Assembly: GCA_017465845.1 (NCBI GenBank)
Contig: JAFTVH010000124.1
Location: forward strand, 1-42,133
DNA length: 42,133 nt
DNA from: Lachnospiraceae bacterium
GTDB taxonomy: Bacteria; Bacillota; Clostridia; Lachnospirales; Lachnospiraceae
Direction: 5' to 3'
Under the pieces are notes generated by a model. That model was not told the origin of the DNA and did not search any database. It saw nothing but the letters and a program-made list of their open reading frames with translations. The position numbers and the translations under genes are program-made. Shown here one piece after another: positions 765 through 6,807 of the stretch; position 1 is the stretch's first letter; every line of letters begins with the position of its first letter.

Positions 765-1181
765 TCACTTTATTTCGTACTTCCCCACTTCTTTCAGGCG
801 CACCATTGCCCTGGCTAACGATGCTCTGGATACATGGTACTCCTGTATGCTCTGGTTCTGTCTCATCTGTTCCTTTGCCCTATCGTAAGCCTCTTGGGCC
901 CGGACAGCATCGATATCCTCCGGCCTCTCCGCCGTATCCACCAATACTGTTACACGGTTGTTGGCAATGTGGGCAAAGCCGATTCCCACCACCACTTTCT
1001 GCCATTCCTCCTGTTCATCCACTTTAAAGCGAAGTTCCCCCTCCTTCGTAGCCACCACCATATTTTCATGATGGGACATAATGGCCTGTTCTCCGTCAAG
1101 GGCAGGCACAATGACGATACCGCATTTTCCGTCGTAAAACACTTTATTACTGGCAATAATCTTAAGGCTGAACGTATTCAT
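765..1181 (-). CDS. atpC: F1F0 ATP synthase epsilon subunit
   Basis: This 138-residue protein is the epsilon subunit of F1, part of the central stalk with gamma and in many bacteria an inhibitor of ATP hydrolysis. The N-terminal beta-sandwich is visible (VPALDGEQAIMSHHENMV, the equivalent of the family's LPGxxGxxGILPxHAP region), followed by the two-helix C-terminal domain starting near residue 88 (RPEDIDAVRAQEAYDRAKEQ). Length is normal. The gene is last in the operon, four bases after the atpD stop, with GGGAG near the atpD stop as ribosome site. A GC-rich stretch at 735-765 follows the stop, but no clear hairpin with a U-run is seen. Confidence 0.95.
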   Translation of the reverse strand: MNTFSLKIIASNKVFYDGKCGIVIVPALDGEQAIMSHHENMVVATKEGELRFKVDEQEEWQKVVVGIGFAHIANNRVTVLVDTAERPEDIDAVRAQEAYDRAKEQMRQNQSIQEYHVSRASLARAMVRLKEVGKYEIK

Positions 1182-1185
1182 AGAC

Positions 1186-3515
<2,330 letters not shown>

Positions 3516-3532: not shown

Positions 3533-5266
3533 TTACTGATACTGTTCTCTGAATTCTTCGGCTGCTTTCACAATCTTTGCCGCCATTTCTTCTTCCAGTG
3601 TCTTTTTCGTCTCTATCTGTTTCCCGATTTCCGGATGCACGCTGTCTATATATTCCAGCATCTTCATCTGGAAATCCTTTACCCGTTTTACGGGTATATC
3701 AATCATTACTCCGGCATTTGCCACGCATAATGTAATGACCTGCTCATGCAGAGATAACGGTCTGCATAAAGGCTGCTTCAACAGTTCCATCAGTACTTTA
3801 CCGTGAGCCAGCTGCTGTCTGGTAGTATTATCCAAGTCCGAAGCAAACTGGGTGAACACTTCCATTTCCCTAAACTGTGCCAGATCGATACGGATACTTC
3901 CTGCCGCTTTCTTCATGGCTTTCGTCTGAGCCGCACCACCTACACGCGACACGGACAGCCCCACATTAACCGCCGGGCGCATCCCCTCGAAGAACAGGTT
4001 GCTTTCCAGGAAAATCTGACCGTCTGTAATGGAAATAACGTTAGTCGGTATATAGGCCGACACATCACCTGCCTGAGTTTCTATGATAGGCAGTGCCGTT
4101 ATAGAACCGCCGCCCTTCTCTGTGCTCAGTCTGGCAGAACGTTCAAGCAGCCTGGAATGCAGGTAAAATACATCTCCCGGAAATGCCTCACGGCCCGGTG
4201 ATCGTTCCAGAAGCAGGGACAGGGCACGATAAGCCACTGCATGCTTGGAAAGATCATCATAAACAATCAGTACATCCTTTCCCTGATACATAAAGTATTC
4301 TGCCAGGGCTGTGCCGGAATAAGGCGCAATATACTGAAGCGGTGCGGGGTCGCCGGCTGTAGCTGATACGATGATGGTATAATCCATTGCATCGTTCTTT
4401 TTCAGAATATTCACCAGTTTGGCTATAGTGGAAGCCTTCTGCCCGATAGCTACATAGATGCAGACAACATCTTTTCCTTTCTGATTCAAAATGGTATCCA
4501 CGGCGATAGAAGTCTTACCGGTCTGTCTGTCACCGATGATCAGTTCACGCTGCCCACGTCCAATGGGGAACATGGAATCAATGGCAAGAATCCCTGTTTC
4601 CAGAGGTACACCTACGGATTTACGGTCTACGATTGAAGGGGCAGCCTCCTCAATGGGACGGTAACCTTCTTCTTTGATAGGACCTTGTCCGTCAATTGGG
4701 GCCCCCAATGCATCAACGATCCTTCCTTTATAGCCCTCTCCTACCGGAATACCTGCTCTCTTACCGGTCCGTACCACTCTGCTTCCTTCCCGGATTTCAT
4801 TCTCTCTACCAAAAAGGATACATCCGATGGCATCTCTTCTGATATCCTGTACCATGCCCTTGACACCACTGTCAAAAAGCACAATCTCACCGTACATGGC
4901 ATGATCGATTCCTTCCACATTGGCAATGCCGTCACCAACCCAGATGACAGAACCCACTTCCTTATCCTGGGCCTCAAGCTCGAATGCTTCTATTTCACTC
5001 CGCAAAATATCGATAATGCCTTCCGTACCCCCACCTTGGGCACTATTTGCCTTGGAAAGCCGTTCTTTCAACTGGCGGATACGTCCCTGAGTGCTCCAGT
5101 CCACCACATCATTTCCCACCTGCAGTTTGAACCCGCTGCCGAGAGAGGGATCTTCTGTCATCGTCAGTTCAAATTGATCACTGCCATACTTTTCCGCAAT
5201 GTAAGAACGGATTCCTGCAATCTGCGATTCATCCGGTGGGGTCACAAAAGTAAGCTTTACATCCAT
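3533..5266 (-). CDS. atpA: ATP synthase alpha subunit with an N-terminal delta-subunit C-domain fusion
   Basis: The 577-residue product is about 75 residues longer than a normal alpha subunit. Residues 1-72 do not match alpha. They match the C-terminal half of the delta (OSCP) subunit: [19 protein letters not shown], then a short beta-strand stretch with [20 protein letters not shown] and [10 protein letters not shown], which parallels the E. coli delta end ([26 protein letters not shown]). A short Ser/Gly linker (about 73-82) leads into a normal alpha N-terminal helix ([14 protein letters not shown]), the [15 protein letters not shown] strand, the P-loop GDRQTGKTS at 245-253 and the arginine-finger region VSRVGGAAQ. 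No separate delta gene sits between atpF and this gene; the atpF stop is three bases upstream. GGAGAG precedes the ATG by seven bases. A GTG directly before it could also start. Confidence 0.93.
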
Positions 5267-5269
5267 CAC

Positions 5270-5758
5270 TTATCTCTCCGATCCGCCTGTTTTTGCAAGA
5301 AATTGATTATAGAGTGCTTCGTCTTCCTTCTCGCCGGCTTTGGAAGCTACCAGCTTGGCTGCAGCAGCCACAACCAGATCTGCGATCTGATACTGTGCCT
5401 GTTCCATACGCTTTTCCTGCTCCCTGTCGGCAAGTGTCCTGGCATCAGCCAGAATCTTATCAGCCTCTGTTTTTGCCTCGGTTACCCTACGCTGATATTC
5501 TTCCTCAGCTTTCCCTCTGGCCTCCTTCAGAGTTTGATTTCTTTGCTCTTCGATGCCGTTCATGGCTGCCTTGACCTGTTCCTCTAGCTGTCTTGCTTTC
5601 TCCTCAGCCGCCCGGGCCTCTGCATATTGCTTATCGATCTCCTCCTGTCTGGCCGCCAGTATTTTATTCACAGGCTTTAACAGGAACTTCTTTACGATCA
5701 CCAAAATAATCAATATATTAATGATTGTCCATAACAAATTCAAATCAATTCTTAACAT
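5270..5758 (-). CDS. atpF: F1F0 ATP synthase b subunit (peripheral stalk)
   Basis: This 162-residue protein has one N-terminal membrane helix (residues about 7-26, LLWTIINILIILVIVKKF), the family-typical LLKPVNKIL segment, then a long highly charged helix rich in Glu, Lys, Arg and Ala ending near residue 140. This is the b-type stator that dimerises and reaches up to F1. Only one b gene is present, so a homodimer is expected. Its C-terminus (ALYNQFLAKTGGSER) looks like an ordinary b end and carries no delta domain, in contrast to the mycobacterial b-delta fusion. GGAGGG lies nine bases before the ATG. The stop almost abuts the delta-alpha fusion gene. Confidence 0.94.
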   Translation of the reverse strand: MLRIDLNLLWTIINILIILVIVKKFLLKPVNKILAARQEEIDKQYAEARAAEEKARQLEEQVKAAMNGIEEQRNQTLKEARGKAEEEYQRRVTEAKTEADKILADARTLADREQEKRMEQAQYQIADLVVAAAAKLVASKAGEKEDEALYNQFLAKTGGSER

Positions 5759-5773
5759 AAGCCCATCCCTCCT

Positions 5774-5995
5774 TTATTTCAGGAAGAAGATGATCAATAC
5801 TGCAATAACAAAACCATAGATGGCTGTTGCCTCTGCCAGCGCTCCACCCAAAAGCAATATTTTGGTAATCTTACCTTCTGCTTCCGGCTGTCTTGCCACT
5901 GCTTCGGTTGCCTTACTGGTGGCAATTCCGATACCGACTCCTGCTCCTACACATGCCAATGCTGCAATACCTGCTCCAATTGCTACTACGCTCAT
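5774..5995 (-). CDS. atpE: F0 ATP synthase c subunit (rotor ring)
   Basis: A 73-residue hairpin of two membrane helices joined by the conserved polar loop ARQPEAEGK. The ion-binding carboxylate is the Glu in [10 protein letters not shown] of helix 2. The helix-1 Gln (GVGQG in Ilyobacter) and the Ser after the helix-2 Glu, which mark Na+ rings, are Ile and Ala here, so proton coupling looks more likely; this is inference from motif comparison. The frame is open upstream to a TTG at 6031, but GGAGG six bases before the ATG at 5995 and the family length decide the start. Lies between atpB and atpF. Confidence 0.95.
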
Positions 5996-6056
5996 AAAAT
6001 CCTCCGTTTCTGCCGCTGATGCGGCCTGCAAAGTTTATCAAGATCCGTTTCACTGT

Positions 6057-6746
6057 TTACTCAATCGCTTCTTTCACAAACAGTGATGTCAAAAATACAA
6101 ATACATACGCCTGAATCAGCCCATCAAATACATCAAAGTAAAAGCTGAACGGAATTGGCACTACCACAGGTATCAGCAGTTTGATCAATTCCATAATAAC
6201 ATAGGCTCCCAGTACATTACCGAACAATCGCATGCAAAGAGATAGCGGTTTAATAAATACTTCCAGAATATTGATCGGTGTCACGATGGCAATGGGCTGC
6301 GTAAAGCTTTTGAGCCACCCCTTCACACCTTTTTTGTGTATTCCTGCATATTCTATGAGAATAATACTCATAATTGCCAGCGCCGCTGTCACATTCATAT
6401 CTTTGGTGGGCGGTTTCATACCAAACAGACCTATGACATTAGAGATTCCAATATAAATCAGCACGCTGATCAGATACGGAACATATCGTTTTCCCTCTTC
6501 TCCTACCATGCCTGACACGAATTTATCGAGCCAGGTAACAATGCTTTCCGCCACAAGCTGACGCTTGCTTTCCGGATGCACCTTCAGGTTTCCGGTAAGA
6601 ATAACCGATACCAGCAGGATAAATGCCATAATCACCCAGGTAATCACAACTGATTCCGCAATCTCCAGATCTCCCAGACCGGTATGAATGGTAAAAGCAG
6701 TCTCACAGTTCAGCTCTTCCAGGAGGCTTTCTGCCAGTTCATCCAT
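6057..6746 (-). CDS. atpB: F0 ATP synthase a subunit
   Basis: Membrane stator subunit that holds the two ion half-channels; 229 residues with five or six hydrophobic segments. The essential arginine is in SLCMRLFGNVLGAY, and the last helices carry DVFDGLIQAYVFVFLTSLF, the other half-channel motif. It is the first gene of the atp operon; no atpI or atpZ-like gene precedes it. Two starts are plausible. The ATG at 6746 has AAGGAAG seven bases upstream and fits homolog N-termini. An in-frame ATG at 6776 also has a purine-rich GGAAGGA upstream and would add ten residues. Confidence 0.94.
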   Translation of the reverse strand: MDELAESLLEELNCETAFTIHTGLGDLEIAESVVITWVIMAFILLVSVILTGNLKVHPESKRQLVAESIVTWLDKFVSGMVGEEGKRYVPYLISVLIYIGISNVIGLFGMKPPTKDMNVTAALAIMSIILIEYAGIHKKGVKGWLKSFTQPIAIVTPINILEVFIKPLSLCMRLFGNVLGAYVIMELIKLLIPVVVPIPFSFYFDVFDGLIQAYVFVFLTSLFVKEAIE

Positions 6747-6807
6747 ATTTCCACTTCCTTTCTTTTCAGGAACCATTCAGGTTCCTTCCTTCTTTATATG
6801 TAAAAAC

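What the first reader, a model, noticed from the sequence alone, without database searches (positions are those of the whole stretch)
3533..5266. Delta C-terminal domain fused to the N-terminus of ATP synthase alpha, with no delta gene in the operon
Residues 1-72 align with the C-terminal half of the delta/OSCP subunit, not with alpha. A short linker leads into a complete alpha, including its own N-terminal helix. The delta N-terminal six-helix domain, which normally caps the alpha crown, is absent, and the atpF stop is three bases upstream, so no gene was missed. With three alphas per F1 the complex would carry three delta C-domains and no delta N-domain, so the b dimer may attach covalently-linked to alpha rather than through a separate delta. 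b-delta fusions are known in mycobacteria; I do not know of a described delta-alpha fusion, but I could not search.
Basis: partly seen in the sequence, partly recalled or inferred. Interest (0 to 1): 0.85.

Follow-up and report, generated by a model that had tools for sequence, protein, structure and literature searches.

The report
Stalk-anchor domain fused to ATP synthase alpha
In this bacterium the part of ATP synthase that ties the stator stalk to the catalytic head is fused directly to the alpha subunit, giving three anchor points instead of one; an engineered enzyme of the same design carries up to three stalks and makes ATP at about half the usual proton-motive force, so such a low-voltage ATP synthase may have evolved naturally.

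Summary
Confirmed: the minus-strand gene 5266..3533 encodes the delta/OSCP C-terminal domain (residues 2-70, PF00213, E 5.5e-11 on residues 1-80 alone), a short linker and a complete alpha. The operon a-c-b-[deltaC-alpha]-gamma-beta-epsilon has no atpH. The genome does hold a full atpH, in a second, ordinary, Na+-type operon on contig C16.

It is no oddity: 73 of 397 family genomes sampled carry the fusion (lower bound), and I fetched fusions from 19 further families. Two forms recur, full delta-alpha and deltaC-alpha; they interleave on an operon tree (at least 16 switches), two deltaC-alpha genes keep clear remnants of a deleted deltaN, and one genome fuses b-deltaC-alpha. Start codons for a free alpha are not conserved.

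The architecture is in print: Ueno et al. 2025 built deltaDeltaN-alpha in Bacillus PS3 (PDB 9JC1), saw up to three stalks and three a subunits, measured H+/ATP 5.8 versus 3.0, and noted the fusion in Acidaminococcus fermentans. Best reading: a natural multi-stalk candidate.

The parts
6057..6776 (-). atpB, Fo subunit a (239 aa)
   Evidence: open frame; used as tblastn query
5774..6031 (-). atpE, Fo subunit c (ATG probably near 5995; the frame opens at TTG 6031); carboxylate motif LAEATAIYG without the Na+-ligand Gln in helix 1, so H+-type by eye
   Evidence: ion type is inferred, not measured
5270..5758 (-). atpF, Fo subunit b (162 aa), stop TAA directly before the fusion, same frame
   Evidence: PF00430 E 6e-14; frame
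5057..5263 (-). delta/OSCP C-terminal domain, residues 2-70 of the fusion
   Evidence: PF00213 positions 104-172, E 5.5e-11
5024..5056 (-). linker, residues 71-81, between deltaC and alpha's own N-terminal helix
   Evidence: between the matches; this region is one residue longer than in engineered 9JC1 in the alignment
3536..5023 (-). complete alpha subunit (AtpA), residues 82-577
   Evidence: TIGR00962 E 5e-229; PF02874, PF00006, PF00306
2589..3515 (-). atpG, gamma subunit (308 aa)
   Evidence: used as tblastn query
1186..2592 (-). atpD, beta subunit (468 aa)
   Evidence: used as tblastn query
765..1181 (-). atpC, epsilon subunit (138 aa)
   Evidence: used as tblastn query

Best explanation
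[quoted passage not shown] The covalent link replaces the delta N-domain, which normally holds delta on the crown. Shown here: the fusion, the absence of deltaN, its spread, selection on deltaC, and repeated switching between forms with and without deltaN. Inferred: because each of the three alphas offers a b-binding site and no deltaN blocks the threefold axis, more than one b2 stalk, each with its a subunit, can attach; the enzyme then carries more ions per ATP and can make ATP at a low proton-motive force. The full delta-alpha fusion is the likely intermediate: atpH fused in frame to atpA first, and deltaN was then deleted many times.
For: Fusion and domain identity. Spread: 73 of 397 family genomes sampled (46 deltaC-alpha, 26 full delta-alpha, 1 b-deltaC-alpha); 32 of 32 loci fetched as fused from 19 other families proved fused; Pfam finds OSCP in 10 of 10 fusions checked. 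No deltaN in the frames up to 3 kb upstream of the 95 deltaC-alpha and b-deltaC-alpha loci (best E 1). In 28 of 76 genomes the fusion is the only alpha, and in 26 of these 28 no other OSCP match passes the cut-off. Start codons: 48 of 48 separate alphas have an in-frame start at codons -40..-12, but only 114 of 183 fusions (50 of 89 full, 64 of 94 deltaC-alpha), below the 84% (1973 of 2350) of same-sized windows inside alpha. deltaC median dN/dS 0.12 (54 pairs) and 0.09 (8 pairs). Switching: 24 changes, at least 16 (deltaC-alpha label) or 17 (full label) forced by branches of 95% SH-aLRT, on a 117-row alpha+beta+gamma tree; one origin of six deltaC-alpha rows rejected, AU p 0.00065. Two clear remnants of deltaN. 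Geometry: residues 10-185 align to engineered 9JC1 with a single one-residue gap. Engineered precedent: PMC12229609.
Against: No stoichiometry, structure or H+/ATP ratio of any natural member was measured or predicted here. Even in the engineered enzyme only 26% and 8% of cryo-EM particles had two or three stalks. Full delta-alpha fusions keep a deltaN about as conserved as that of separate deltas and under purifying selection (dN/dS 0.15), yet three deltaN cannot all sit on the threefold axis, so fusion alone does not prove multi-stalk use. The alpha-only tree forces fewer switches, 8 or 7, and both trees are quick searches. 13 of 25 deltaC-alpha genes compared with a near full fusion show no likeness to its deltaN of score 20 or more. 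The window's genome has a second alpha and a full delta, so mixed assembly is not excluded there. 23 of the 28 single-alpha genomes also encode an A/V-type ATPase, so the fused enzyme is rarely the only rotary ATPase. The b-deltaC-alpha fusion (L116) fits three b2 stalks badly.
Confidence: 0.57

Rival explanations
1. Single-stalk enzyme: all three alphas carry deltaC, but only one site binds b2 (limited by supply of a and b, or by room in Fo). The fusion merely makes a separate delta, and later deltaN, unnecessary.
For: deltaN is kept and conserved in the full fusions; even the engineered enzyme averaged 1.26 stalks on grids; the window operon has one a and one b gene in the usual order.
Against: In the engineered homologue SDS-PAGE gave 2.2 times the a and 1.8 times the b of wild type, and H+/ATP was 5.8 against 3.0. 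Repeated loss of exactly the domain said to block extra stalks.
Confidence: 0.31
2. The normal one-delta-to-three-alpha ratio is restored: free alpha is made from an internal start or by proteolysis, so that only one alpha per F1 keeps the domain.
For: The window has in-frame GTG/TTG codons near the alpha start; in the wider stretch -40..0, 76 of 94 deltaC-alpha fusions have some start codon; proteolysis cannot be tested from sequence.
Against: At -40..-12 starts are fewer than in same-sized windows of the same genes (114 of 183 against 84%), and 7 of 28 single-alpha genomes have none from -40 to 0. The linker columns are poorly conserved, with no shared cleavage motif visible by eye.
Confidence: 0.07
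3. The fused alpha co-assembles with the ordinary alpha and delta of the second operon (C16), giving hybrid F1.
For: This genome has both operons, and 47 of 76 genomes examined have two or more alphas.
Against: The two alphas of this genome are only about 56% identical; 26 of 28 genomes with a single fused alpha have no other OSCP match over the cut-off.
Confidence: 0.04
4. Assembly error or decaying gene.
For: The window's genome is a fragmented 85% complete assembly.
Against: 173 distinct fused open frames among 184 loci; 64 of the 76 genomes are at least 90% complete; dN/dS near 0.1.
Confidence: 0.01

Closest known systems
Engineered deltaDeltaN-alpha FoF1 of Bacillus PS3 (Ueno et al. 2025, Nat Commun 16:5410, PMC12229609; PDB 9JC1 chain I)
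   Same: deltaC joined to the N-terminus of complete alpha by a short linker, deltaN deleted, no separate delta; collinear with the window protein over residues 10-185 with one one-residue gap.
   Different: Man-made, thermophilic Bacillus, epsilon C-domain also removed. Its stalk number and ion ratio were measured; those of the natural proteins found here were not.
Natural delta-alpha fusion of Acidaminococcus fermentans (and UniProt G4Q3K6, A0A1I2C5T3), noted in the same paper
   Same: delta fused to alpha with deltaN missing; predicted there to be multi-stalk (passage read; Supplementary Fig. 9 not seen).
   Different: Negativicutes; sequences not held here and not compared. In the parts I read the paper mentions neither full delta-alpha nor b-deltaC-alpha.
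Mycobacterial b-delta fusion
   Same: A delta gene fused to a neighbouring stator gene.
   Different: There delta is joined to b (reported for Mycobacterium and Gordonia in PMC5709465, passages; PDB chains 7jg5_d and 9vkp_d named b-delta are weak hits); here deltaC is joined to alpha. Only L116 has b too.
N-ATPase
   Same: An F-type ATPase found beside a main one, without a separate delta.
   Different: N-ATPase order is beta-epsilon-..-a-c-b-alpha-gamma and its b subunit is longer (PMC5709465 and PMC5706428, passages); here the order is a-c-b-alpha-gamma-beta-epsilon, b is 162 aa and c lacks the Na+ ligands by eye.

Membership tests
ATP synthase alpha subunit (AtpA) | Full-length TIGR00962 equivalog match over cut-off | tested here: met
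   761 bits against cut-off 484, profile 5-501 of 503
ATP synthase delta / OSCP (PF00213) | C-terminal domain over the gathering cut-off | tested here: met
   43.3 bits against 22.3 for residues 1-80, profile 104-172
ATP synthase delta / OSCP (PF00213) | N-terminal six-helix domain | tested here: not met
   No match before profile position 104 in the protein; no deltaN in it or in upstream frames with a deltaN profile of my own
deltaDeltaN-alpha FoF1 (Ueno et al. 2025) | deltaC fused in frame to the N-terminus of a complete alpha by a short linker, deltaN missing | tested here: met
deltaDeltaN-alpha FoF1 (Ueno et al. 2025) | No free delta for this enzyme | tested here: inconclusive
   None in the operon; a full atpH exists in another operon of the genome; none over the cut-off in 26 of 28 relatives with a single fused alpha
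deltaDeltaN-alpha FoF1 (Ueno et al. 2025) | More than one peripheral stalk and a subunit per enzyme; H+/ATP about doubled | not testable with these tools
   Needs purified enzyme
N-ATPase | Gene order beta-epsilon-..-a-c-b-alpha-gamma | tested here: not met
   Order; reference order
N-ATPase | Lengthened b replacing delta; Na+ ligands on c (usual, not universal) | tested here: not met
   b 162 aa; c GVGIG...LAEATAIYG, by eye
Mycobacterial b-delta | delta fused to b | tested here: not met
   b and the fusion are separate frames with a TAA between

The most novel reading that the evidence does not exclude
Multi-stalk ATP synthases are a natural, widespread and repeatedly evolved design in fermenting Clostridia: atpH fused to atpA, and the deltaN domain that limits the enzyme to one stalk was then deleted many times in parallel, turning a single-stalk into a multi-stalk machine with two- to threefold more protons per ATP, so that ATP can be made at the low proton-motive force of fermenters. 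One lineage (G068) went on to fuse b as well, fixing the b:alpha ratio at 1:1.
Probability: 0.45. Interest if true: 0.92.

Novelty: new member of a known kind. Interest (0 to 1): 0.74.

Why it matters
The number of ions per ATP sets the lowest voltage at which a cell can make ATP; known natural variation comes from c-ring size (PMC12229609). If common anaerobes carry extra stalks and a subunits, that rule falls and energy budgets of fermentation would have to be redone. The question is testable: named strains are among the loci, Pseudobutyrivibrio ruminis DSM 9787 (full fusion) and Lachnospiraceae NK4A144 and KH1P17 (deltaC-alpha); that the last two are cultured is recalled. A review says that P. 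[quoted passage not shown] Its genome has one separate-delta operon with Na+-type c and one delta-alpha operon with H+-type c (types by eye), so the fused enzyme is probably the H+ one (inference). The full delta-alpha forms pose a puzzle of their own: three deltaN domains for one central seat.

Tried and rejected
Internal start for free alpha: tested, not supported as a conserved device. deltaN hidden upstream or behind a frameshift: no match in upstream frames. deltaN decaying in the full fusions: at equal alpha identity it is on the whole as conserved as in separate deltas (alpha 85-90%: 49.2 against 48.7), though lower in one bin (80-85%: 43.3 against 49.5, 10 pairs) and higher in another (90-95%: 67.4 against 54.1). 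Read-through of the b stop: b and the fusion are in register in 8 of 73 fused loci, the window included, below one third, so no sign of it. N-ATPase: order and b length do not fit. L137 (287 aa frame) looked like b-delta but is a chance overlap of frames. L122 and L133 (a stop inside the match) were fetched as fused but have separate deltas. Rows with frames near 690-710 aa and a stop inside were taken as separate delta and alpha in one frame; four such places were fetched and are separate (L312, L313, L314 and L315).

Limits: match lists were cut by the tool, so counts are lower bounds. The 184 fused loci hold near-duplicates (173 distinct). Some are cut short (L162, L173, L174, L205, L284). 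Trees: 6 rows under 350 aa left out, the rest thinned to 157; one search kept the 124 rows of the H+-side clade and used the 117 with beta and gamma. Both are quick searches (SH-aLRT only, LG+G4), whose starred branches the tool advises to trust less where rows are long. The AU group was chosen after seeing the tree. Changes on a tree cannot tell gain from loss; loss of deltaN is inferred from remnants and from how unlikely regain is. Remnants: of 25 pairs, 12 score 20 or more and 7 of these start in the first 20 residues, but only L152/L149 and L215/L102 are clear to me; L096/L084 and L214/L151 match partly in the overlap with the end of b. The DWS-to-EVG distance is a crude pattern count: deltaC-alpha median 46 (middle half 44-49, range 28-98, 91 of 94 found), window 48, 9JC1 47 when counted to the same residue (one search printed 46, to the residue before). 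Ion types are read by eye; my scripted test for the helix-1 Gln failed and is not used. The A/V-type matches lie just under that family's curated cut-off. Paper searches for a described fusion; of the papers they listed (64 and 65 listed 15 of 58 and 10 of 36, seen as titles and abstract starts) I know only PMC12229609 to report one. In this check I lowered the best explanation from 0.58 to 0.57 because the remnants are fewer than I first wrote.

Full report
WHAT IS THERE. The gene lies on the minus strand, ATG 5266 to stop 3533, 577 aa. Residues 2-70 match the C-terminal 69 positions of the delta/OSCP family (PF00213 104-172 of 172; E 5.5e-11 on residues 1-80 alone), and residues 82-576 are a complete AtpA. 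The operon reads a, c, b, deltaC-alpha, gamma, beta, epsilon. The b stop TAA is followed at once by GTG-ATG, in the same frame as b, with GGAGAG ahead of it. There is no atpH in the operon, but contig C16 holds a second, ordinary operon with a full atpH. C16's c subunit carries the Gln and Glu-Thr-Thr pattern of Na+ binding, while the window's c has LAEATAIYG and no such Gln (ion types by eye).

HOW COMMON. With residues 1-80 as query, 158 of 397 sampled family genomes match. I fetched 74 further listed places with an open frame of 570 aa or more, 6 stand-alone controls and two ordinary operons, and added the window. Of these 83 loci, 46 are deltaC-alpha, 26 full delta-alpha, 1 b-deltaC-alpha and 10 separate (L122 and L133 of the 74 proved separate). 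So 73 of 397 genomes is a lower bound, the list having been cut. Profile A1 over 398 phylum and 391 class genomes found more. I fetched 32 of these from 19 other families; all 32 proved fused, 29 deltaC-alpha and 3 full. Pfam finds OSCP in 10 of 10 checked, divergent ones among them. A scan of named genomes kept the best 80 of 526 relatives; 79 of the 80 are fused, 60 full and 19 deltaC-alpha. They include Agathobacter ruminis, Pseudobutyrivibrio ruminis DSM 9787, P. xylanivorans and Caproiciproducens galactitolivorans. In all there are 184 fused loci, 173 of them distinct.

IS IT THE WORKING FORM? In 28 of 76 genomes the fusion is the only alpha; 26 of these 28 have no other OSCP match over the cut-off, while G363 and G168 have a full delta on another contig. 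Fifteen of the 26 are deltaC-alpha or b-deltaC-alpha genomes at least 90% complete. Against over-reading: 23 of the 28 also encode an A/V-type ATPase, and 47 of the 76 have two or more alphas. deltaC is under purifying selection, median dN/dS 0.12 over 54 pairs of full fusions and 0.09 over 8 pairs of deltaC-alpha; deltaN in full fusions 0.15, alpha 0.08-0.09.

DOES EVERY ALPHA CARRY IT? Counted from the conserved E-V-G near the start of alpha, 48 of 48 separate alphas have an in-frame ATG/GTG/TTG at codons -40 to -12; among fusions only 50 of 89 full and 64 of 94 deltaC-alpha do, against 1973 of 2350 control windows inside alpha. In the wider stretch -40 to 0 the figures are 55 of 89 and 76 of 94. 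Seven of the 28 single-alpha genomes have no start codon from -40 to 0, among them the deltaC-alpha genomes G043 (99% complete) and G260 (98%). An internal start is therefore not a conserved device, though it is not excluded in each genome. Proteolysis cannot be tested from sequence.

EVOLUTION. Full and deltaC-only fusions are interleaved. On a 117-row alpha+beta+gamma tree the two states need 24 changes, of which branches with 95% SH-aLRT force at least 16 (deltaC-alpha label) or 17 (full label); on a 157-row alpha tree these force 8 or 7. Both are quick searches. A single origin for six deltaC-alpha rows, the window among them, is rejected (AU p 0.00065; group chosen after the tree). The window's nearest row is a full fusion, L151, 85% identical. 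Two deltaC-alpha genes keep clear remnants of the lost deltaN: L152 MLQTVDKDAQM against L149 MLQAVEKYAQM, and 20 residues in L215 against L102; two more are weak and the window keeps none. The separate state changes at least 4 times on the wider tree, so fusion arose or was undone several times.

A FURTHER STEP. L116 (G068, 96% complete) encodes b-deltaC-alpha in one 787 aa frame: PF00430 at 18-146, OSCP at 140-258, then alpha. It is the only b over the Pfam cut-off in that genome. Between b and deltaC lies a charged stretch. No second genome of the genus is held.

WHAT IS KNOWN. The sequence search of solved structures gave PDB 9JC1 chain I as best match. It is the engineered deltaDeltaN-alpha of Ueno et al. 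2025 (PMC12229609; I read the abstract, passages, and parts 1, 3 and 4 of 6; the link of entry to paper is my inference from the molecule name). They argue that deltaN sits on the threefold axis and limits the enzyme to one stalk. With deltaN removed and deltaC fused to alpha they found 15, 51, 26 and 8% of particles with 0, 1, 2 and 3 stalks, each stalk with an a subunit, a and b at 2.2 and 1.8 times wild type by SDS-PAGE, and H+/ATP 5.8 against 3.0. They note a natural case in Acidaminococcus fermentans and two UniProt entries. The window protein aligns with 9JC1 over residues 10-185 with one gap of one residue.

HOW IT MOST LIKELY WORKS. deltaC binds the end of b2 as usual, and the covalent link to alpha does the job of deltaN. 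With three such sites and an open axis, one to three stalks can bind, each bringing an a subunit, and ions per turn rise in proportion. The first sentence follows from domain identity, selection and the engineered structure; the rest rests on the engineered homologue alone. The full fusions are the main difficulty: their deltaN is on the whole as conserved as in separate deltas, though at most one of three can take the central seat. Either these enzymes use one deltaN and one stalk, and loss of deltaN is the step to more stalks, or deltaN has another place.

PHYSIOLOGY. P. ruminis DSM 9787 has both a separate-delta operon with Na+-type c and a full delta-alpha operon with H+-type c. [quoted passage not shown] the primary paper was not seen). 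The fused enzyme is probably the H+ one. A low proton-motive force in fermenters would favour more ions per ATP (inference).

VERDICT. The window gene is a new member of a kind first put in print, as far as I found, in 2025. The full delta-alpha and b-deltaC-alpha relatives and the repeated switching of deltaN go beyond what I found in print.

Noticed in passing
G000 contig C16:7918-11486 (loci L001, L143): The same genome has a second, ordinary F-ATPase operon with separate full-length delta and a c subunit with Na+-type ligands by eye (GPGVGQG ... VAETTGLY).
   Followed up: partly
L116:3428-5788 (G068 contig C33): One 787 aa open frame reads b-deltaC-alpha, a triple stator fusion that fixes b:alpha at 1:1; the only b of that genome over the Pfam cut-off.
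   Followed up: partly
L092-L094, L105, L108, L109, L115, L118, L120, L121, L123-L131, L134, L136: A distinct fused operon type: subunit a (where it aligned) only 23-28% identical to the window's, c frames of 117-159 aa with a long N-terminal extension and the motif F[IVM]ET..IYAL; all are deltaC-alpha.
   Followed up: partly
rows with open frames of about 690 aa and a stop inside: In many Bacillota with separate delta and alpha the two genes lie in one frame with few stops between them, so a single stop loss could fuse them.
   Followed up: no
L290 and L318 (family code f157): Sister rows in one family, one with full delta-alpha fusion and one with separate delta: a recent fusion or split.
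   Followed up: no
L078 (G294): A full delta-alpha frame of 758 aa, about 80 aa longer than its relatives; the extra length seems to lie behind alpha's C-terminus.
   Followed up: no
window 5270-5488: The six-frame PF00213 match runs across the b stop codon (profile 31-172, 47.7 bits, against 43.3 for deltaC alone): the helical end of b weakly resembles the deltaN profile, probably coiled-coil likeness.
   Followed up: no
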